Positions 5,324-31,906 of a stretch of 64,000 bases of DNA are shown one piece after another. Numbering within the stretch: the stretch's first letter is position 1; each line of letters starts with the position of its first letter. Both the position numbers and the translations under genes were made by a program. Location: contig NZ_JACSEU010000002.1 of the NCBI RefSeq assembly GCF_014334335.1, positions 102,405-166,404 on the forward strand, written 5' to 3'. Source of the DNA: Treponema sp. Marseille-Q3903. GTDB lineage: Bacteria > Spirochaetota > Spirochaetia > Treponematales > Treponemataceae. The notes below the pieces were generated by a model. That model was not told the origin of the DNA. It did not search any database and saw nothing but the letters and a program-made list of their open reading frames with translations.

Positions 5324-7150
5324 TCAGTGTTTATCAAGAGGAAGTCCCCCGGAGATGACTGCGCGAATACGACGCACGCCGGCTGATGAACTTTGTTCCT
5401 TTTGAATCTTGAATTGACCGATCTGTGCAGTGTGCTGAACATGCGGACCTCCGCAAACTTCTTTGCTGAACCAGTCGTTTTCGGCATCTCGGCCGATTGT
5501 GTAAACTTTTACGTCTTCCCCGTATTTTCCTGTAAACAACGCACGTGCCCCGGCTTTTTTTGCGTCATCAAGCGGCATAACTTGCATCGTAACCGGTAAA
5601 TCTTCTTTAATTTTTTCGTTTACAATATCTTCAACTTTCTGAATTTCTTCTTTAGTCATCGGGCGGTCAAATGTGAAGTCAAAGCGCATGCGTTCATTTG
5701 TGATGTTTGAACCTTTTTGAGCAACTTGTTCACCGAGAACATCTATGAGAGCCTGCTGCAATAAATGTGTTGCAGTGTGATATTTTGTTGTAACATCAGA
5801 CTGTTCAGCCAATCCACCTTTTGCAGCCCCAACTTCTGCAGTTTTCGATGCTTCCTGATGTTTTTTCTCCGCTTCTTTAAAACCTTCAACATCGACAGTA
5901 AATCCGTTTTCCGCACCGAGCTCTTGAGTGAGTTCAAGCGGATATCCGTAAGTTTCATAAAGATTATAAGCAACTTTTCCGCTGATAATCTTTTTAGGAT
6001 TTTTCATCAAATTAGGAAGCATCTTCTCAAATTCAGCTTCGCCTTTTTTCAAAGTCTGACGGAATTTTGCTTCTTCAGATGTAAGTTCGCTAAAAATTTT
6101 ATTTTTATTTTGTTCGAGCTCCGGATAAGCGATTTTGAAGTTTTCAACAACGGTGACTGCAACTTCTGCCATAAAATCTTTGTCAATTCCAAGTTTCATC
6201 CCGTGACGAACTGCACGGCGGATAAGACGACGAAGGACATAACCGGCTCCAACTCTAGCCGGGCTGACACCTTTTTGATCACCGAGAATAAATACAGACG
6301 AACGAGCGTGGTCTGCTATGATGCGAACAGACCTATCTTTTTCTTCATCAGTTCCGTATGTGTAATTAGAAAGTTTCTCTATCGTTTTAATGATAGGCTG
6401 AAAGACTTCTGTAAGATACACTGATTTTTTTCCTTGAAGGATGCAGTTAGTTCTTTCAAGCCCCATTCCCGTGTCGACATTTTTTTTAGGAAGAAGCTCA
6501 AGATTCTTTTCGTCTATGCGGTTGTACTGCATAAATACGTTGTTCCAAATCTCAAGCCAATTTTCAGGGTCCGTACCTTTGTTTGAACCTTTTGGAGGAA
6601 GATTTTCGCCGACCCAGTAAAAAATTTCTGTATCAGGACCACAAGGACCGGTTGGACCAGCAGCCCACCAGTTATCGCTTGCCGGAAGATACGCAATTTT
6701 GTCTTCCGGCATACCGTTAGCAATCCATGCAGCAGCCGCCTCTTCATCACGAGGAGCGTTTTCATCTCCGGCAAAAACAGTCACAGAGATTTTACGAGGG
6801 TCAAGCCCAAGCCATTTAGGAGATGTAAGAAATTCGTAAGAAAATCCGATAGATTCTTTTTTAAAATAGTCGCCGAGAGACCAGTTTCCAAGCATTTCAA
6901 AACAAGTGAGATGAGACGGATCCCCAACTTCATCGATATCACCGGTGCGTATACATTTCTGATAATCAGTAAGGCGAGTGCCAGCAGGATGTTTTTCACC
7001 GAGAAGGTAAGGAACAAGAGGGTGCATTCCAGCTGTCGTAAATAAAACCGAAGGGTCGTTTTCAGGAATTAAAGACTGCCCTGAAATTTCAACATGATTT
7101 TTTGATTTAAAAAACTCAATATATTTTGAGCGAAGTTCGTTAGCGTTCAT
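5324..7150 (-). CDS. alaS: Alanyl-tRNA synthetase, short spirochaete form
   Basis: 608 residues starting MNANELRSKYIEFFKSKNH, a textbook AlaRS N-terminus. It contains the class II aminoacylation domain (DPSVLFTTAGMHPL, GNWSLGDYFKKE), the tRNA-recognition domain, and the editing domain with HTATHLL (about residue 460) and CGGPHV (about 565). It charges tRNA-Ala and edits Ser/Gly mischarging. It ends soon after the editing domain (VISGGLPLDKH), so the long C-terminal C-Ala/DHHA1 domain of most bacterial AlaRS, which are about 870 residues, is absent. Short AlaRS proteins of about 600 residues are known in Treponema and Borrelia, so this is not a truncation in this genome. Confidence 0.97.
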   Translation of the reverse strand: MNANELRSKYIEFFKSKNHVEISGQSLIPENDPSVLFTTAGMHPLVPYLLGEKHPAGTRLTDYQKCIRTGDIDEVGDPSHLTCFEMLGNWSLGDYFKKESIGFSYEFLTSPKWLGLDPRKISVTVFAGDENAPRDEEAAAAWIANGMPEDKIAYLPASDNWWAAGPTGPCGPDTEIFYWVGENLPPKGSNKGTDPENWLEIWNNVFMQYNRIDEKNLELLPKKNVDTGMGLERTNCILQGKKSVYLTEVFQPIIKTIEKLSNYTYGTDEEKDRSVRIIADHARSSVFILGDQKGVSPARVGAGYVLRRLIRRAVRHGMKLGIDKDFMAEVAVTVVENFKIAYPELEQNKNKIFSELTSEEAKFRQTLKKGEAEFEKMLPNLMKNPKKIISGKVAYNLYETYGYPLELTQELGAENGFTVDVEGFKEAEKKHQEASKTAEVGAAKGGLAEQSDVTTKYHTATHLLQQALIDVLGEQVAQKGSNITNERMRFDFTFDRPMTKEEIQKVEDIVNEKIKEDLPVTMQVMPLDDAKKAGARALFTGKYGEDVKVYTIGRDAENDWFSKEVCGGPHVQHTAQIGQFKIQKEQSSSAGVRRIRAVISGGLPLDKH

Positions 7151-7320
7151 AATCTTTTATTATATTTAATTTCAGCGATTGTGTCATCAGGATTGTTTTT
7201 ATATTGTTATTGCAAGTTGTTGCGCACATATAAAATTGTCGCCCGTTCGATTTTCAAATTGAATCATTTGCGATATTTGTCGGGCCCCGTCGTATTTTCG
7301 TATTTACACAAAAGGGGTCG
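7151..7320. other. Intergenic region between alaS and the cassette remnant
   Basis: About 170 bases with no credible gene. It must carry the alaS promoter, leftward. An imperfect inverted repeat with GCCCG at 7241-7245 and CGGGC at 7281-7285 encloses the short palindrome TTCAAATTGAA (7253-7263). It could form a hairpin in the alaS leader, but no known riboswitch or T-box was recognised. Confidence 0.3.
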
Positions 7321-7394
7321 TTCTAACTATGAGCTTAAACGGTGGTGTGTGTGTGGGGCAGACACGTTTGTCGGATTTGAAGGCATTGTTATGT
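7321..7394 (-). repeat. attC-like integron recombination site B, after mazF
   Basis: Read leftward, the site opens with ACATAAC (7394-7388) two bases after the mazF stop and closes with GTTAGAA (7327-7321). The arms are imperfectly complementary around a central AC/GT-rich hairpin. Its first half shares the scaffold TAACAA-G--TTCAAA-CCGACAA with attC-like site A, about 23 of 28 positions. The opening ACATAAC is exactly complementary to the GTTATGT that ends site A. That is expected when one cassette lies between the two sites, because the cassette's leading bases derive from its own attC. Confidence 0.7.
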
Positions 7395-7396
7395 GA

Positions 7397-7735
7397 TTAC
7401 TCTATTAACAATTTTATATTATCAACTACTGAATCAATTTCTTCTTCAGTTGCTTTTTCTATAAAATCGCAGTTTCTTTGTTTCCAGTCGAGATTTTTTA
7501 TTTGATCACTAAGAATACAACCTTTTATAGAATGCTTGTCCAATACAATTTCAAAAGGATAGCCTTTTATATGACTTGTAATCGGGCAAAATAAAGCAAG
7601 ACCTATTTTCTGATTATACATTTTTTGAGAAATACAAATTGCCGGGCGATGACCTTTCTGTTCATGACCTGCGTGTGGATCAAAATCAAGCCAGACTAAA
7701 TCACCTTTTTCAGGAACATAACTTGAGTTTACCAT
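7397..7735 (-). CDS. mazF: MazF/PemK-family type II toxin (endoribonuclease)
   Basis: 112 residues with the MazF/ChpB fold pattern: PEKGDLVWLDFDPHAGHEQKG at the start, then HRPAICIS, FCPITSHIKGYPFEIVL and LSDQIKNLDW. These match the substrate-binding loop and the S/T-containing core of MazF RNases, which cut mRNA when freed from the antitoxin. ATG start overlapping the antitoxin end by seven bases. The stop codon is two bases from an attC-like site. The N-terminal Arg region common in MazF (GRRP) is HRP here, still in family range. The MazF family is firm; sequence specificity is unknown. Confidence 0.92.
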   Translation of the reverse strand: MVNSSYVPEKGDLVWLDFDPHAGHEQKGHRPAICISQKMYNQKIGLALFCPITSHIKGYPFEIVLDKHSIKGCILSDQIKNLDWKQRNCDFIEKATEEEIDSVVDNIKLLIE

Positions 7736-7962
7736 TCTTCCTTGCCTACTGAAAATCCTGCTGAAATTTCTGAATGAATATTTTCCGAAGAAACCATTTT
7801 AAGCATACCATCAAGAGTTTTTTTCTGAGGAAGAATAACTATCTTTCCTTTTTCAGCGATTACTTCAATTTTGCTTCCATTCTTTACGTTATTGTCTTTT
7901 GCCCAATGTGAAGGAATCCTGAAACCGAGGCTGTTACCCCATTTCTGAACGACTGCTTGCAT
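7729..7962 (-). CDS. mazE: MazE-like AbrB-fold antitoxin
   Basis: 77 residues. The N-terminal swapped-hairpin AbrB/MazE DNA-binding domain is clear (QAVVQKWGNSLGFRIPSHWAK, NGSKIEVIAEKGKIVILP), followed by a short acidic tail likely to wrap MazF. It should neutralise the toxin and repress its own promoter. ATG start with GGAGGTG upstream. A promoter and a palindrome containing the -10 lie immediately before it. First gene of the two-gene operon. Confidence 0.92.
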   Translation of the reverse strand: MQAVVQKWGNSLGFRIPSHWAKDNNVKNGSKIEVIAEKGKIVILPQKKTLDGMLKMVSSENIHSEISAGFSVGKEEW

Positions 7963-7982
7963 AATTCACCTCCATCACTTTA

Positions 7983-8012
7983 AGTATATACATTGTATAT
8001 TCTTATTGTCAA
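7983..8012 (-). promoter_or_regulatory. mazEF promoter with palindromic operator
   Basis: On the minus strand TTGACA (8012-8007) and TATACT (7988-7983) are separated by 18 bases, a strong sigma70-type promoter. The perfect 15-base palindrome ATATACATTGTATAT at 7986-8000 overlaps the -10, an ideal position for autorepression by the AbrB-fold antitoxin. Having its own promoter is typical for toxin-antitoxin genes in integron cassettes. Confidence 0.65.
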
Positions 8013-8042
8013 GAGATTATATTAGATAAAAAAACTTTATTT

Positions 8043-8096
8043 TTATTTATCTTCAGATTTAAAATACTTTCGATAATAAATATCAGAAATAGACAT
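8043..8096 (-). CDS. Possible 17-residue mini-ORF in the cassette
   Basis: ATG at 8094-8096 preceded by AGAGGTG, encoding MSISDIYYRKYFKSEDK and a stop. It lies between the broken membrane-protein gene and mazEF. The good ribosome site is the only support. It may be a gene remnant or chance. Confidence 0.2.
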   Translation of the reverse strand: MSISDIYYRKYFKSEDK

Positions 8097-8122
8097 AGTA
8101 TGAGCACCTCTTTATAAGAACC

Positions 8123-8294
8123 TTAACCTTGTGCATATAAGTTCTTGTGAAATTCATCGCTCATTTCTGCGTAATATTCCAATTTCTGATTTAATTCACA
8201 ATTTTTATAACTAAAACACCTATTACAACAAACGCTAACACAAGAAATATTTTTATTCTTGTATTTTTATAACTTTTTCATTTACATCTGACAT
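8123..8294 (-). pseudogene. Small single-pass membrane protein gene with two homopolymer frameshifts
   Basis: An ATG at 8292-8294 follows AGGAG at good distance. The frame opens as MSDVNEKV then shifts. Adding one A to each of two A5 runs (8264-8268 and 8202-8206, minus strand) gives one continuous 57-codon frame: a short polar start, a membrane helix (IKIFLVLAFVVIGVLVI) and a polar tail containing NQKLEYYAEMSDEFHKN. Because both lesions are the same kind, either A-run sequencing errors or replication slippage could explain them. The function is unknown; it is the first gene after attC-like site A. Confidence 0.5.
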
Positions 8295-8328
8295 AATTTT
8301 TTCTCCTAGCAACCTGGTACGGTCATCC

Positions 8329-8398
8329 ACATAACATTTGGTTGTACCGCAAACGCAAGAAAAGCCTTGCGTTGTCGGGTTTGAAAACGTTGTTAGGC
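8329..8398 (-). repeat. attC-like integron recombination site A, after the ParE-type toxin
   Basis: Read leftward the site starts with the canonical inverse core GCCTAAC (8398-8392), directly after the toxin TAA codon, and ends with GTTATGT (8335-8329). A central hairpin with stem ACGCAAG/CTTGCGT lies at its middle. Its left half is strongly similar to attC-like site B near 7.4 kb. Size (70 bases), core sequences, imperfect dyad symmetry and position next to a stop codon all fit attC. Confidence 0.7.
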
Positions 8399-8740
8399 TT
8401 AGTTTCCATAATAACGAGATAATTTTGAAATTATTATATCTTCAAAATTTCTTCGACCATCAATGATTGTATGAACAATTACCTTGTTATCAGATATTTC
8501 ATAGAGGATTCTATAATATTCTTGAATAAGTTCTCTATATCGTAAAATTCCTTGCTTTTCCAGTTCTGGGACAACCCTACCACTTTTGGGGTGCCTCTGC
8601 AACGACATTACATTTTTTTCAAATTCAGAAATTAGTTTTTCAACATAATTCTGCGACAAAGAAAAATAATATTCTATAATTTCATTCAAATCGTCTTCTG
8701 CAAACCGAGAAACTATAACTTTTCTAATTTCATTTTTCAC
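8399..8740 (-). CDS. RelE/ParE-family toxin
   Basis: 113 residues with the RelE/ParE pattern: IVSRFAEDDLNEIIEYYFSLS, then FEKNVMSLQRHPKSGRVVPEL and the C-terminal strand core LRYRELIQEYYRILYEI plus VHTIIDGRR. ParE members poison gyrase and RelE members cut mRNA at the ribosome; the sequence alone does not separate them, although the helical N-terminus favours ParE. GTG start overlapping the antitoxin by 11 bases, with AAGGA upstream. Its stop touches attC-like site A. Confidence 0.88.
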   Translation of the reverse strand: MKNEIRKVIVSRFAEDDLNEIIEYYFSLSQNYVEKLISEFEKNVMSLQRHPKSGRVVPELEKQGILRYRELIQEYYRILYEISDNKVIVHTIIDGRRNFEDIIISKLSRYYGN

Positions 8741-9014
8741 AGTTATATTTCCTTTTCAAGTTTGAAAAGACTTCTGTTGCAGGTTTACATTTTCCTTTTT
8801 TTACATCTTGTTCAGAAAATTGAATGATTTTTAACAGGTTAAAGGCATTTTTCATTTCCTGATAAGATTCTACATCTATTAAAACAGCTCTTGATTCCCC
8901 ATTTTGAGTAATTACAAGAGGTTCTTTCCTATCATTGACAAAATTCATCATATCAGCCGCATTTGTTTTGATGTAAGAAATTGGTTTTATACATTCTTGA
9001 ACATTCGTAATCAT
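8730..9014 (-). CDS. Phd/YefM-family antitoxin
   Basis: 94 residues starting MITNVQECIKPISYIKTNAADMM, the Phd/YefM DNA-binding fold, with the diagnostic KEPLVITQNGESRAVLIDVESYQ segment. The C-terminal tail probably binds the toxin. ATG at 9012-9014 was chosen because GGAG sits just upstream; an in-frame TTG at 9062 would run through the promoter and operator. First gene of the antitoxin-toxin operon, overlapping the toxin by 11 bases. Confidence 0.9.
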   Translation of the reverse strand: MITNVQECIKPISYIKTNAADMMNFVNDRKEPLVITQNGESRAVLIDVESYQEMKNAFNLLKIIQFSEQDVKKGKCKPATEVFSNLKRKYNCEK

Positions 9015-9022
9015 GATTGTCT

Positions 9023-9054
9023 CCAGTCTTTTTATTATGCCATATTTAGACTGG
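9023..9054 (-). promoter_or_regulatory. Operator/promoter of the Phd-ParE pair
   Basis: CCAGTCT (9023-9029) and AGACTGG (9048-9054) form a perfect seven-base inverted repeat, 18 bases apart, just before the antitoxin RBS. A -10-like CATAAT in minus-strand reading lies between the arms. The layout suggests autoregulation by the antitoxin or complex. Confidence 0.5.
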
Positions 9055-9190
9055 AATAACAATTGTTTTTGGATAAAAGTATCATCAATAATTTAAAGAG
9101 GTGTACACCAAAGGGAAGCAGTTCAATCCCACGAAAAACCACCCCGCTAATTATTGCCAACAGCTTTGACTGCCGCTTGTGGAGCAATTT

Positions 9191-10747
9191 TTATCTCGTG
9201 AAAGTGTATACTTTTCCTTCGGTTACAAAACAATCTTTTGGGGTAACTTTTACCGGACTAAAAATCACTGTGTCAAAATCTGTAACAACTTTTTCGACCG
9301 TCTGTTTTTTTACAGTTTCTGTGATTGTCTTTGTTCCGAACTGCATCGCATAGACTTCGCCGAAAATCGAAGTGTCTCCATCTGAGCGAAATTGAATTAC
9401 ATTGTAAGCGCCGGCTTTCCCTGTAGAATAAACTCCTGTTTCATCTATGCCGTTATACTTTGCCTTGTAGTTGTAATCGGTAAATGATACTTCTACTGTA
9501 GAATCTGAAGATGTCCATAAAGGAGCTTTTTTTATTTCATTGTTATAAGTTGCAAGTTCTACATCGTCTTTTTCATTTTCAAAAGAGCTTTGAAGGCTGA
9601 GCTTTTTGTATTTACCGTTCCAAAGTGAATCGCTTTTTATGATGATATTTACATCATCCCTGAGGGCAACTTTAATTTCATCAAGGCTCGAAACTGAAAC
9701 ATCAAAACGCCTGTGTAGATTCATTATGTCTGCATTTGTTGTCGAAATATAAATACCATTGTGGCGAAGTTTTCCATCTTCCCACTCGTAAACTTCCTGA
9801 TAATCTTTGTAAAGCTGGATAATCTGACGGTCATCGTAATTAAAATAAAGATATCTGATATTGCCATCAGTATTGTCCGTCTTGTACCAAAGCCCGTCCA
9901 AAAATTTTGCAAAAGTCTCGATAGTTCCATCTTGAATTTTTGAAAGTGCGGTCTCTGCAAGCCTGTCTGCATTTACTCTAATCTGCCGGTAAAGTTCGTA
10001 TTTTTGAGCAGAAGGATTCCACCTATATTCCTGCTGAATCTGATTTTGGTTGATTTTTTTTGTGTCTTCCGAATTTCCGTCAGTTTCCGCTTTGTCAGAC
10101 TTATAAACCCAAACAGAAAAACTTTCTCCTTTTGATAGCGCCAACTCATAAGCTTCTGATCGCTCTGTCTGCTGAATAAACACTGTTCCGTCAGATTCAA
10201 AATCGCCGATCAATTCCATATCATTTTTCCCATTGCCTGCAACAAAATAATAGATTTTCATCACATAATTTCCATCATCTGCGACTCCGTGATAGATGAG
10301 AGCTTTTTTGTGCTCACCTGTTACATCCATTCCTGAGTATGAAAAAGTTCTTGTTTTTGTAAACTTTGTATCAATCGGCGTAAGTCTCTTGAAAGCTCCT
10401 GTTTTAGGCTCAAGCAAAGCAGGTACAATCCAAAGACTCTGTGAATTGGATTGTCGAATAACGATAACCTCATCATCATAACCATCGTTGTTTATATCCA
10501 TTGTAAGCGTGCTTATCAGAGTTTCTCCTGAATACAATGGAACAAATGTTTCATATTTTTCAGTTTCGTAAGATTGGCGCTCTACTTCAGTTTCAGCATC
10601 TGAATTTGAAGAAGATTTAGGCGTTACAATTTTTGCCCGCGTCATAGTTTTTTCTCTATAGTTAAAAAATACATTTGTCGCAAGGAATGCAATTCCAATA
10701 ACTGCAATTGCAAAAATAAACATTAAAGTTACTGTTTTAGACTTCAT
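9191..10747 (-). CDS. Pallilysin-related adhesin (Tp0751-like), without the HExxH motif
   Basis: 518 residues from the ATG at 10747; a TTG seven codons upstream is less likely. An N-terminal membrane anchor or signal helix (VTLMFIFAIAVIGIAFLATNVFF) is followed by a repeat-like segment with NNDGYDDEVIVI. A domain at about residues 275-415 aligns by eye with T. pallidum Tp0751: FLDGLWYKTD matches LLAGLWIQTE and SDSLWNGKY matches STSMWDGQY. Tp0751 is a lipocalin-fold host-matrix and endothelium adhesin. Its HEVIH stretch corresponds to DEIK here, so a zinc protease activity is not supported. The protein is more than twice as long as Tp0751. Surface or periplasmic location is inferred. Confidence 0.75.
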   Translation of the reverse strand: MKSKTVTLMFIFAIAVIGIAFLATNVFFNYREKTMTRAKIVTPKSSSNSDAETEVERQSYETEKYETFVPLYSGETLISTLTMDINNDGYDDEVIVIRQSNSQSLWIVPALLEPKTGAFKRLTPIDTKFTKTRTFSYSGMDVTGEHKKALIYHGVADDGNYVMKIYYFVAGNGKNDMELIGDFESDGTVFIQQTERSEAYELALSKGESFSVWVYKSDKAETDGNSEDTKKINQNQIQQEYRWNPSAQKYELYRQIRVNADRLAETALSKIQDGTIETFAKFLDGLWYKTDNTDGNIRYLYFNYDDRQIIQLYKDYQEVYEWEDGKLRHNGIYISTTNADIMNLHRRFDVSVSSLDEIKVALRDDVNIIIKSDSLWNGKYKKLSLQSSFENEKDDVELATYNNEIKKAPLWTSSDSTVEVSFTDYNYKAKYNGIDETGVYSTGKAGAYNVIQFRSDGDTSIFGEVYAMQFGTKTITETVKKQTVEKVVTDFDTVIFSPVKVTPKDCFVTEGKVYTFTR

Positions 10748-10854
10748 AGTTCTAAATAATATTGACAAATCTACTTTTTCTCAAGGTATATGAGTTAGCA
10801 ATTTAAAAACCATAGCGTTGCAAGTTGTTCAACAATTAATTGCAAATATTTCAC

Positions 10855-29839: not shown

Positions 29840-31906
29840 TTATTCCTGTTTTGTAATTGTTCTTGTGTCATCAGGATTGTATTTTTTATTGATTTCTCTT
29901 TTGCGTTTTATGCGCATTCTCCAGACGATAAACCATACAATCACAACCCCTAAAGTCAATCCGTACTGGCAGAATATCTTCCAGAAGTTAGCTGCGGCAG
30001 AACTTTTCACGGTGAGGTTGTTTACAGCAAGGCTTTTTGTACGCATAGCGCACAAATCTTCGTTTCCATTCATATAATCTATGACGTTCATGATGAACAT
30101 AGAAATTGGAGTTGAACCACTGTCATCTGTTACTTGACCAGTCGTAATTGAAGATGAGCCTGCGACAAATATTTTTCCGGGCATCACGCTTGAAGCTATG
30201 TGATTTGATGTGACAAGCTCGTTGCCTGAATTTCCAGAATTGTTTTCCTGAACCGGAAATCCTTCGAATGCACTTTTGAATTTTCCTTCGACCATCACTG
30301 CTAATGGGTAAGATTTTAATTTGTCTTTTGCAGGCGGCTGAATCATCAGCGGATTCAAAAGAATTCCATCAGACATTGTCCAAGCTTCATCGGAAGATTT
30401 TGCGAGAACGGTAACTTTTGTATCATCGTCAGCTTCCGCATCCGAAATATCGAGTGAAGAATTCTCAAGCATTATCACAAAACCGAGGTTGTTTGTAATT
30501 GCACTGTTTTTAGCAAGCTGACTTTTGTGCAAGACAGGAGCCCAATAATAGTTCAACTTTCCGTACTGTTGATTGTTTACCTGATAGCTGTTTGAATCCA
30601 TCACCATGTTGTTTTCAATTTTTACACCATATTTATCCAACAACCTGCTTATGTTTGACGTATTTGGAACATAGCTTGGCATTGAATAACCCCTCATTTG
30701 GTCATTGTCGTCGGCATAAACTCCTGACAAAAAAAATAAAATATTTCCGCCGCGCATTACAAACTGGTCGAGCTTATACAATTCCTCTTCCGTGTAATCA
30801 TTTTTTGAGCCGTTTACAATCACCGAATTCATTCCCACAGGAATATCCGAAGAGTTCAAATCGATATCTTCAAGTTTATACATGCCGGAAATCAGAGTTT
30901 GCAAGTTGCCTGCATTTTCCGCTGAAGTGTGTTTCAACTCTCCATGCCCGGTTATATATCCGATTGAAGTCACATTAGACAAAAGGCTCTGTAAACCATC
31001 TGTGATTGCAGACTCTACATCTTCAAGTCCACCGATTGAATAACCAAAGAATGACTGCTTGATTTCAAATGGGAGGCTGTAAAATTTGTCACCGTGTTCG
31101 AGTATAAGCCCTACAGCCGCCTTTTGAGCCTCTTTATTGGAGTCGGTGTAAGAAACAGACTGAATACCGTATTTTTCTACAAGTGCGGTAACTTGCGCTG
31201 TTGAAGGAGATACGTGATTAAAATCGAGCCTGTCCATATTCTTTGCATTTACGCTCTTGTATGCTTTTTTTACGATATCTTCCGCCTGTTCAGCGCCGTT
31301 TATCCCAAGCTGCTTAAGAGAATCGCTTAAATAAAGAGTCAGCGTGATTTTATCGTCTTTTTTTAATCCTGCGAGAGTATCAGACATTGAAATCATCTTC
31401 GACATTGCAGATGTAAGTTTAAATTCAAAACTGTCAGCCGTCGTGATAGGGTTTATTGTCTGTATGCTGTCGCCATAAGTGATGACGATGCCCATGTACC
31501 CCTGTTTGAATCCGACTTCGTTGTTTTTTACTTCCTGAATCTGAATCCGGCTCAAACCGAGACTATCGGCAAGTTCTGCATTTTCCGGTTTTGTTGTATC
31601 TACAAATGAAACAGAAAAGTTTTTATTTGCGACTCCTTTGTATTCAACGAGAATATCTTTTACATATTGAGCTACACTGTTATAAGGAGACGGAAGATTT
31701 TCGTCAAAAAAAGCTCTCACAGAAAGCGGCTGCTCAAGATTTTTTACAACTGTTTTACTTCCTTTTGAAAGCGAGTAAGATTTTGGAGCCGTAAGGTCAA
31801 ATCTTGCAAACAAGTTGTAACTTGCGAGATTTATAAAGACAATCAGAAATAAAAATAAAACAAAATCTGATTTTGGACTTTTTAGCCAGTTTATTATTTT
31901 TTTCAT
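29840..31906 (-). CDS. GldG-like ABC transporter auxiliary protein
   Basis: 688 residues, one membrane helix at each end (VLFLFLIVFINLASYNLF near 20; LTLGVVIVWFIVWRM near 655) and a large periplasmic domain. The N-terminal part has the GldG pattern LTAPKSYSLSKGSKTVVKNLEQPLSVRAFFDENLPSPY, and the middle GYITGHGELKHTSAENAGNLQTLI plus DQFVMRGGNILFFLSGV matches the DUF4350/GATase-like fold. In Bacteroidetes GldG works with GldA and GldF in gliding; here it only indicates transporter type. Twelve bases after gldF. Confidence 0.88.
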   Translation of the reverse strand: MKKIINWLKSPKSDFVLFLFLIVFINLASYNLFARFDLTAPKSYSLSKGSKTVVKNLEQPLSVRAFFDENLPSPYNSVAQYVKDILVEYKGVANKNFSVSFVDTTKPENAELADSLGLSRIQIQEVKNNEVGFKQGYMGIVITYGDSIQTINPITTADSFEFKLTSAMSKMISMSDTLAGLKKDDKITLTLYLSDSLKQLGINGAEQAEDIVKKAYKSVNAKNMDRLDFNHVSPSTAQVTALVEKYGIQSVSYTDSNKEAQKAAVGLILEHGDKFYSLPFEIKQSFFGYSIGGLEDVESAITDGLQSLLSNVTSIGYITGHGELKHTSAENAGNLQTLISGMYKLEDIDLNSSDIPVGMNSVIVNGSKNDYTEEELYKLDQFVMRGGNILFFLSGVYADDNDQMRGYSMPSYVPNTSNISRLLDKYGVKIENNMVMDSNSYQVNNQQYGKLNYYWAPVLHKSQLAKNSAITNNLGFVIMLENSSLDISDAEADDDTKVTVLAKSSDEAWTMSDGILLNPLMIQPPAKDKLKSYPLAVMVEGKFKSAFEGFPVQENNSGNSGNELVTSNHIASSVMPGKIFVAGSSSITTGQVTDDSGSTPISMFIMNVIDYMNGNEDLCAMRTKSLAVNNLTVKSSAAANFWKIFCQYGLTLGVVIVWFIVWRMRIKRKREINKKYNPDDTRTITKQE

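What the first reader, a model, noticed from the sequence alone, without database searches (positions are those of the whole stretch)
7321..9060. Remnant of a chromosomal integron cassette array carrying two toxin-antitoxin pairs
Seen directly: two 70-74-base attC-like sites, each directly after a toxin stop codon, share about 23 of 28 positions in their left arm. The GTTATGT that ends site A is exactly complementary to the ACATAAC that opens site B. That is the signature of one inserted cassette, since a cassette carries its own attC ends. Established: T. denticola has a large chromosomal integron and cassettes often carry toxin-antitoxin genes. Inference: this is a cluster lacking an integrase, or the edge of a larger array. 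GCCTAAC of site A predicts a GTTAGGC at the start of the Phd-ParE cassette, which I could not find.
Basis: partly seen in the sequence, partly recalled or inferred. Interest (0 to 1): 0.7.

Follow-up and report, generated by a model that had tools for sequence, protein, structure and literature searches.

The report
Stray integron cassettes carrying toxin-antitoxin genes
Two toxin-antitoxin gene cassettes, with the recombination sites that integrons use, sit between two ordinary genes of a treponeme whose full integron lies elsewhere in the genome, and some of its relatives carry stray cassette sites at several places.

Summary
Sites A (7321-7394) and B (8329-8398), minus strand, are the window's two best matches to a covariance model built from 19 attC sites of this genome's own integron (E 0.0028 and 0.00034). 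Their left arms rank 1 and 2 of 127,950 positions (31.6 and 25.7 bits; next 9.2). An intact IntI with 29 attC sites lies on another contig. So this is a two-attC cluster without its own integrase (CALIN): a 1,008-bp MazE-MazF cassette with matching ends (7/7) and a Phd-ParE cassette whose left end I could not fix. Of 46 relatives' loci examined none has an attC here; in 36 alaS follows in the same orientation, within 100 bp in 20, against 2.04 kb here. An attC directly follows 16 of 29 related MazF and 6 of 29 related ParE genes; in G060 both genes lie inside its integrase-linked array. Two more outlying attC loci exist in this genome; some closed relatives have up to about eleven. Best explanation: integrase-mediated (attG-type) insertion outside the array; the insertion point is unproven. 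Known kind of element; the dispersal is the interesting part.

The parts
7321..7394 (-). attC site A: outer box ACATAAC, end box GTTAGAA (the last box would be flanking DNA if the cassettes were inserted here)
   Evidence: R1 21.8 bits, E 0.0028 in window; left arm rank 2 of 127,950; aligned with resident attC sites
8329..8398 (-). attC site B: outer box GCCTAAC, end box GTTATGT
   Evidence: R1 25 bits, E 0.00034 in window; left arm rank 1, right arm with end box rank 1
7327..8334 (-). MazE-MazF cassette, 1,008 bp from the TT of B's end box to the G of A's end box
   Evidence: start box GTTATGT equals the reverse complement of end box ACATAAC, 7 of 7; the cut point G^TT is recalled integron knowledge
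7397..7735 (-). MazF-type toxin gene, 112 aa
   Evidence: PF02452 E 2.5e-23; NF007386 135.2 bits, cut-off 120
7729..7962 (-). MazE-type antitoxin gene, 77 aa
   Evidence: PF04014 E 2.6e-11
7983..8012 (-). promoter-like site TTGACA-18-TATACT upstream of mazE; relatives' DNA similarity to this unit begins at 8005-8045 in 28 of 29 loci
   Evidence: pattern scan, 11 of 12 bases; number of sites in the region (12) is not above shuffles (mean 9.4, sd 3.0); similarity limits
8399..8740 (-). ParE-type toxin gene, 113 aa
   Evidence: PF05016 E 9.4e-13
8730..9014 (-). Phd/YefM-type antitoxin gene; ATG at 9014 chosen by eye, the listed ORF opens at 9062
   Evidence: PF02604 E 2.9e-15; sequence
9034..9062 (-). 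promoter-like site upstream of phd (TTGTTA-17-CATAAT with TG); relatives' similarity begins at 9046-9071 in 28 of 29 loci
   Evidence: pattern scan, 9 of 12 bases; similarity limits
9063..9190 (-). stretch that should hold the left end of the Phd-ParE cassette; end not resolved
   Evidence: no GTTAGGC; two GTT only
7159..7187 (-). promoter-like site of alaS (ATGACA-17-TATAAT), recognisable by eye in several relatives' short spacers
5324..7150 (-). right flank in cassette direction: alaS
   Evidence: NF002436 884.4 bits, cut-off 529
9191..10768 (-). left flank in cassette direction: pallilysin-related protein gene
   Evidence: NF033751 378.9 bits, cut-off 150

Best explanation
The segment is a two-cassette cluster of attC sites without its own integrase (CALIN), made of integron cassettes that were inserted between the pallilysin-related gene and alaS. 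Most likely the integron integrase, this genome's own or that of an ancestor, joined a folded cassette attC site to a non-array sequence carrying G^TT (an attG-type event); the second cassette entered by a further event or together with the first. Each cassette is a self-contained toxin-antitoxin unit with a promoter-like site of its own, so it could be expressed and kept without the integron's promoter. Shown: attC identity, matching ends of the MazEF cassette, a resident IntI with an unbroken frame, a locus without attC in the relatives examined, the same kinds of genes next to attC elsewhere. Inferred: integrase as the agent, the attG target, order of events, expression and addiction.
For: attC. 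The model's stem: 96.9% of cells paired and a covariation score of 0.348, reached by none of 500 shuffles and by no slid version; two of its five measures are not clear of the shuffles (pairs changed on both sides 8, reached by 17 of 500; further pair types 13, reached by 275 of 500). Resident integron: IntI C1:681914-682861, 487 bits to TIGR02249, cut-off 265; 368-aa ORF matching solved IntI4 (2a3v, E 1.5e-76) over residues 61-368; 29 attC sites from 684,335 to 723,739 (listed; one of them, 693,640, only). Locus in relatives: 46 pallilysin loci were fetched, of 185 other genomes with a match; in 36 alaS follows in the same orientation, 20 of these with 28-94 bp and 16 with 132-1,451 bp between the ends of the BLAST matches; 8 had no alaS within reach, 2 had it in opposite orientation; no attC in any of the 46 at E up to 1 (29, 17). 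Mobile genes: ParE in 28 of 196 and MazF in 36 of 196 genus genomes at E up to 1e-10, this one included in both; an attC on the same strand begins within 30 bp of the toxin match end in 16 of 29 MazF loci (29 fetched of 40 other matches listed) and 6 of 29 ParE loci (all other matches listed). In G060 the MazF (86%) and ParE (75%) relatives lie at C1:3,241,132 and 3,257,373, inside the attC run that follows its IntI at 3,223,344, while its pallilysin-alaS spacer is 76 bp (L075). Second outlying pair in this genome at C1:2,122,647-2,123,676 with matching ends GTTAGAT/ATCTAAC.
Against: The exact insertion point is not seen: no GTTAGGC at the left, and about 130 bp between site A and the alaS promoter-like site plus up to 128 bp at the left have no counterpart in the short spacers. 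The relatives compared are different species (pallilysin at most 62% identical), so loss in some of them cannot be excluded. Sixteen of 36 spacers are longer and several hold other DNA, so this spacer takes insertions of several kinds. A and B score low for the genome as a whole (E 0.111, 0.0131), so both sites look somewhat decayed. Thirteen of 29 MazF and 23 of 29 ParE relatives have no model-detected attC just downstream. No mobility or expression was tested.
Confidence: 0.8

Rival explanations
1. Relic of an ancestral array: an integron once stood at alaS or was moved there by rearrangement, then lost its integrase and all but two cassettes.
For: CALINs have been proposed to be degraded integrons (PMC9024848, passages seen). 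Sites A and B score below most resident ones.
Against: No attC in any of the 46 relatives' loci examined, a full integron elsewhere in the same genome, and no match to the integron-integrase family on contig C2.
Confidence: 0.12
2. The segment came in by homologous recombination of flanking DNA from another treponeme in which the cassettes already stood here.
For: Related toxin genes are spread over the genus (ParE 67-87%, MazF 58-94% protein identity among the listed matches).
Against: No relative examined has attC sites at this locus (46 loci).
Confidence: 0.05
3. The two hairpins are transcription terminators or other repeats after toxin genes and have nothing to do with integrons.
For: They follow stop codons directly.
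Against: No terminator-like site in 7100-9300; left-arm sequences match resident attC sites of an IntI-linked array far above any other place in the window, and the MazEF boxes match 7/7.
Confidence: 0.02

Closest known systems
CALIN, cluster of attC sites lacking an integron-integrase (IntegronFinder 2.0, PMC9024848; passages seen)
   Same: Two attC sites at one place without an adjacent integrase, meeting the default threshold of two.
   Different: IntegronFinder's own models were not available here; a model made from this genome's array was used.
CALINs away from the main integron in Xanthomonas (PMC12444791; passages seen)
   Same: About half of those genomes have attC clusters at loci other than the integrase locus.
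   Different: Different phylum. The authors find fairly conserved positions and contrast them with the broad attG landscape seen in E. coli; here the alaS locus has no attC in the 46 relatives' loci examined.
attG integration by integron integrases (Loot et al. 2024, Nat Microbiol; not held; known from citing passages and from recall)
   Same: Cassettes outside attI/attC arrays in a genome with an intact-looking integrase.
   Different: Shown experimentally in E. coli; here only inferred from natural genomes, target bases unresolved.
Chromosomal integrons of Treponema (Wu et al. 2013, PMC3607928; parts 1 and 2 of 4 read, passages)
   Same: IntI points towards the cassettes; arrays with strain-variable cassettes.
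   Different: The words toxin, scattered and outside do not occur in its main text; in the parts read, its only integrase-less case is T. phagedenis, at the syntenic integron locus.
Toxin-antitoxin cassettes of oral Treponema-type integrons (PMC4909258; passages seen)
   Same: HicAB, HigBA, RelBE and MazF systems as cassettes; start and end boxes fully complementary in 51 of 58 cassettes.
   Different: Those cassettes were recovered by PCR from saliva DNA, without information on stray chromosomal positions.

Membership tests
integron attC site | outer boxes: AAC and GTT cores with the treponeme-type consensus RYY(/R)YAAC and GTTRR(Y)R(Y)Y(R) | tested here: met
   All four boxes fit the relaxed consensus quoted (PMC4909258). 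By the stricter RYYYAAC/GTTRRRY (recalled) only GCCTAAC fits; ACATAAC, GTTATGT and GTTAGAA each depart at one base, and the first two occur in the resident array as well.
integron attC site | inner arms and paired stem shared with attC sites of an IntI-linked array | tested here: met
   A has one extra base in its right arm, and right arms alone rank low without the end box
integron cassette (MazE-MazF) | start box is the complement of the box that opens its own attC | tested here: met
   7 of 7; control 19 of 28 resident cassettes
integron cassette (Phd-ParE) | same box match | tested here: not met
   no GTTAGGC in 9060-9194; 4 of 28 resident cassettes also match at 5 or fewer of 7. It is described as a cassette with an unresolved start because its own attC (site B) follows ParE, as in 6 of 29 relatives.
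CALIN | at least two attC sites close together with no integrase beside them | tested here: met
attG insertion | insertion at G^TT of a non-attI, non-attC target with an otherwise unbroken empty site | tested here: inconclusive
   relatives too distant and left end unresolved
attG insertion | integrase catalyses the reaction | not testable with these tools
   needs a recombination assay
type II toxin-antitoxin pairs | family of both partners | tested here: met
   PemK/MazF, MazE, ParE, Phd/YefM
type II toxin-antitoxin pairs | toxicity and neutralisation | not testable with these tools
   none

The most novel reading that the evidence does not exclude
Part of this treponeme genus runs a dispersed integron: one integrase serves not only its array but cassettes spread over as many as about eleven chromosomal places, which gain, lose and exchange cassettes in place, so the genome itself acts as the cassette platform and attG-type insertion is a regular route of gene gain in nature.
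Probability: 0.4. Interest if true: 0.65.

Novelty: new member of a known kind. Interest (0 to 1): 0.42.

Why it matters
Integration of cassettes outside arrays is known from laboratory work; natural examples that can be placed on a tree are what would show how often it matters. These treponemes offer a resident integrase, sister genomes (G063, G066) that are mostly 92-97% identical in the blocks compared, with some blocks at 80-87%, and stray sites whose cassette content differs between the sisters, so insertion targets and rates could be read from genomes. Toxin-antitoxin cassettes are the cargo at the alaS site, but I found no significant excess of such cargo at stray sites over arrays.

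Tried and rejected
Rejected: terminators (no terminator-like site); a larger array at this place (no third attC); a decayed third attC in the 130 bp before alaS or in 9063-9190 (half-site scans rank nothing there above 144th).

Led nowhere: the left end of the Phd-ParE cassette from relatives' DNA, because similarity stops at 9046-9071 in 28 of 29 loci and at 9014 in one. Exact attG targets from sister genomes: beside an ffh-like gene (named by eye; one SRP54 match in the gene set) G063 and G066 share the first two cassettes, with GTTAGGC at the start in both, and differ after that; G091 has the flanks almost joined but lacks some flank bases of the others, and G072 has other DNA there. At L166/L178 cassette content differs but the attC sites are not plainly the same one; at L164 no clean empty site appeared. 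An excess of toxin-antitoxin cargo at stray sites: 17 of 76 last genes at stray attC sites against 22 of 136 in arrays, Fisher P 0.27; 15 of 74 without the window, P 0.46; 20 of 76 if PIN_3 is added without checking its overlap with PIN, P 0.10. Helix-turn-helix matches (HTH_3, 4 in each set) were left out. The sets came from 78 stray and 150 array attC sites, opposite-strand duplicates dropped; 2 and 14 had no ORF. The stray set contains some plain chromosomal genes and a 22-kb run in G063 that may be a second array. The family tables show only the first 25 families, so counts are lower bounds. Rfam found nothing at gathering scores. DNA folding alone was weak: z -0.44 to -1.71 for either strand of both sites. 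Naming the organism: one search returned four loci, three from MAGs titled Spirochaetia, Spirochaetales and uncultured Treponema sp., and one weak match in a Ruminococcus MAG; the window's own record may be left out there.
Full report
What is there. The window is C2:102405-166404 of a 2.51-Mb, four-contig genome, 98.66% complete. Between a pallilysin-related gene (9191-10768) and alaS (5324-7150), all read on the minus strand, stand Phd/YefM (8730-9014), ParE (8399-8740), MazE (7729-7962) and MazF (7397-7735), each matched by Pfam above its cut-off. After each toxin stop is an attC-like site: B (8329-8398) after ParE, A (7321-7394) after MazF.

Are they attC sites? I first looked for an integron in the same genome. 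It has one IntI over the curated cut-off (C1:681914-682861, 487 bits, cut-off 265; seven further matches, all below), in a 368-aa open frame that matches solved IntI4 over residues 61-368. It is followed by a run of attC sites from 684,335 to 723,739 on the same strand, the arrangement described for Treponema (PMC3607928). I aligned 19 of these sites, leaving out long or broken ones and both window sites, and built a covariance model. Its stem is supported: 96.9% of cells paired and a covariation score above all 500 shuffles and all slid versions; the number of pairs changed on both sides (8 of 19) was reached by 17 of 500 shuffles and the number of further pair types by 275 of 500. In the window, with filters off, B and A are the best two matches (E 0.00034 and 0.0028); the third has E 0.073. 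A plain matrix of the left arm puts B and A first and second of 127,950 positions at 31.6 and 25.7 bits; the next scores 9.2. The right arm is less telling: with the end box B is first and A 389th of 127,952 (A has one extra base); without the end box A is 31st and B 58th of 127,966. Genome-wide E-values are weaker, 0.0131 and 0.111.

Cassette ends. In a cassette the start box should be the complement of the box that opens its own attC. In the resident array 19 of 28 consecutive cassettes match 7 of 7 and 24 of 28 match at least 6; 10,000 permutations gave a mean of 3.2 and a maximum of 10, and non-partner pairs match fully in 71 of 756. The MazE-MazF cassette matches 7 of 7 (GTTATGT, ACATAAC), giving 1,008 bp from 8334 to 7327. 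The Phd-ParE cassette should start with GTTAGGC; it is not there.

Was the spot once empty? I fetched 46 relatives' loci that hold the pallilysin gene, among 185 other genomes with a match. In 36 alaS follows in the same orientation; in 20 of these the distance between the two BLAST matches is 28-94 bp, in 16 it is 132-1,451 bp (some of the longest seem to include coding sequence beyond the match); 8 had no alaS within reach and 2 had it the other way round. No attC was found in any of the 46 at E up to 1 (29 loci, 17). The window's distance, measured from the same ends, is 2,043 bp. Several short spacers show, by eye, the same alaS promoter-like stretch that lies next to alaS here. These are other species (best pallilysin identity 62%), so the junction cannot be read base by base.

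Are these genes cassettes elsewhere? ParE has relatives (E up to 1e-10) in 28 of 196 genomes of the genus and MazF in 36 of 196, this genome counted in both. I examined all 29 other listed ParE matches and 29 of 40 other listed MazF matches: 16 of 29 MazF and 6 of 29 ParE loci have an attC on the same strand within 30 bp after the toxin match. Thirteen and 23 do not, at the threshold used (E up to 0.1). In G060 both genes (MazF 86%, ParE 75% identical) lie inside its integrase-linked run of attC sites, while its pallilysin-alaS spacer is 76 bp (L075). So cassettes of the same kinds stand in an ordinary array in a relative whose alaS spot has none. This is the best single comparison.

The wider pattern. 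In this genome two other places outside the array hold attC sites: a pair at C1:2,122,647-2,123,676, whose enclosed cassette has matching ends GTTAGAT/ATCTAAC and which follows a ToxN-type (type III) toxin gene, and a single site at C1:1,111,957 with no evident cassette gene. The lower of the pair is weak by itself (E 0.126 genome-wide), and further candidates at 1,023,064 (E 1.16) and 730,056 (E 7.5) are not counted. Of 20 relatives scanned with the same model 16 had matches at E up to 0.01; the listing was cut, so the following are lower bounds. Reading that list against the IntI positions, by my count, G063 (one contig) has 19 attC sites at about ten places outside its array, G066 13 at about eleven, G067 10 at about five, G048 5 at about four, G001 3 at two or three, G199 1, and G060 none listed. 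G067's IntI match is partial and below the cut-off. G043, G070, G184 and G024 had no attC match. So dispersal is strong in some lineages and weak or unseen in others. G063 and G066 are mostly 92-97% identical in the blocks compared, 80-87% in some; they differ in cassette content at outlying sites, for example beside an ffh-like gene, where both begin with the same two cassettes and differ after that. G063 also holds a fused, internally deleted copy of this MazE-MazF unit beside an outlying attC. None of these gave a clean base-level empty site.

How it most likely works. Inference from established integron biology (cut between G and TT, folded bottom strand; recalled): the integrase recombined a cassette attC with a chromosomal target, placing the cassettes between the two genes without breaking either. 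The attG route is known from E. coli work (Loot 2024, not held; cited in the passages). Both toxin-antitoxin units have promoter-like sequences close to where relatives' similarity begins (8005-8045 in 28 of 29 MazEF loci, 9046-9071 in 28 of 29 Phd-ParE loci), which fits the reported view that toxin-antitoxin cassettes carry their own promoters (PMC11023631, passages), so they could persist outside the array. The scan itself found no more promoter-like sites than shuffles give. I tested whether stray sites favour such cargo: 17 of 76 against 22 of 136, P 0.27. They do not, as far as these numbers go.

Against known work. The element meets the CALIN definition. CALINs apart from the integrase locus are reported in about half of Xanthomonas genomes. 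Toxin-antitoxin cassettes from oral Treponema-type integrons are reported. Searches for Treponema or Spirochaet with CALIN and attC, and for Treponema with integron, attC and cassette array or toxin-antitoxin, listed no paper whose title or shown abstract start describes stray cassettes in treponemes; most of the listed papers I did not open, and subscription journals are mostly missing. Hence: a new member of a known kind, with a lineage pattern worth a proper survey.

Noticed in passing
L070:8679-9197 (C1:2,123,679-2,124,197 of this genome): A ToxN-type toxin gene of a type III toxin-antitoxin system (PF13958, E 1.1e-38) directly before an outlying attC; the next cassette has DUF3781 and SAP-domain genes. 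The RNA antitoxin was not looked for.
   Followed up: partly
L165:2650-2893: A stretch of roughly 240 bp of G063 matches more than 30 listed places in G066, G091 and G072 at 76-99% identity, like a short dispersed repeat or non-autonomous element.
   Followed up: no
L163:7890-8189: A fused, internally deleted copy of the MazE-MazF unit beside an outlying attC of G063: a stray cassette gene in decay.
   Followed up: partly
window 7179-7206 and 29863-29891: A 29-bp near-repeat (93%) of the stretch just upstream of the alaS promoter-like site, E 2e-4; meaning unknown.
   Followed up: no
L073, L076, L017, L024, L026 spacers between the pallilysin gene and alaS: Several relatives carry other inserts in this spacer, some with long inverted repeats seen by eye: the spacer seems to be a tolerated landing place.
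   Followed up: no
C1:685,511-685,601, 693,640-693,792, 704,940-705,090 and 714,769-714,877: Four resident attC sites are 91-153 bp long, against 62-67 bp in the 19 that were aligned.
   Followed up: no
G043:C1:297251-297739: A partial IntI match with two TAG codons in a closed genome with no attC match at E up to 0.01: apparent integron loss.
   Followed up: no
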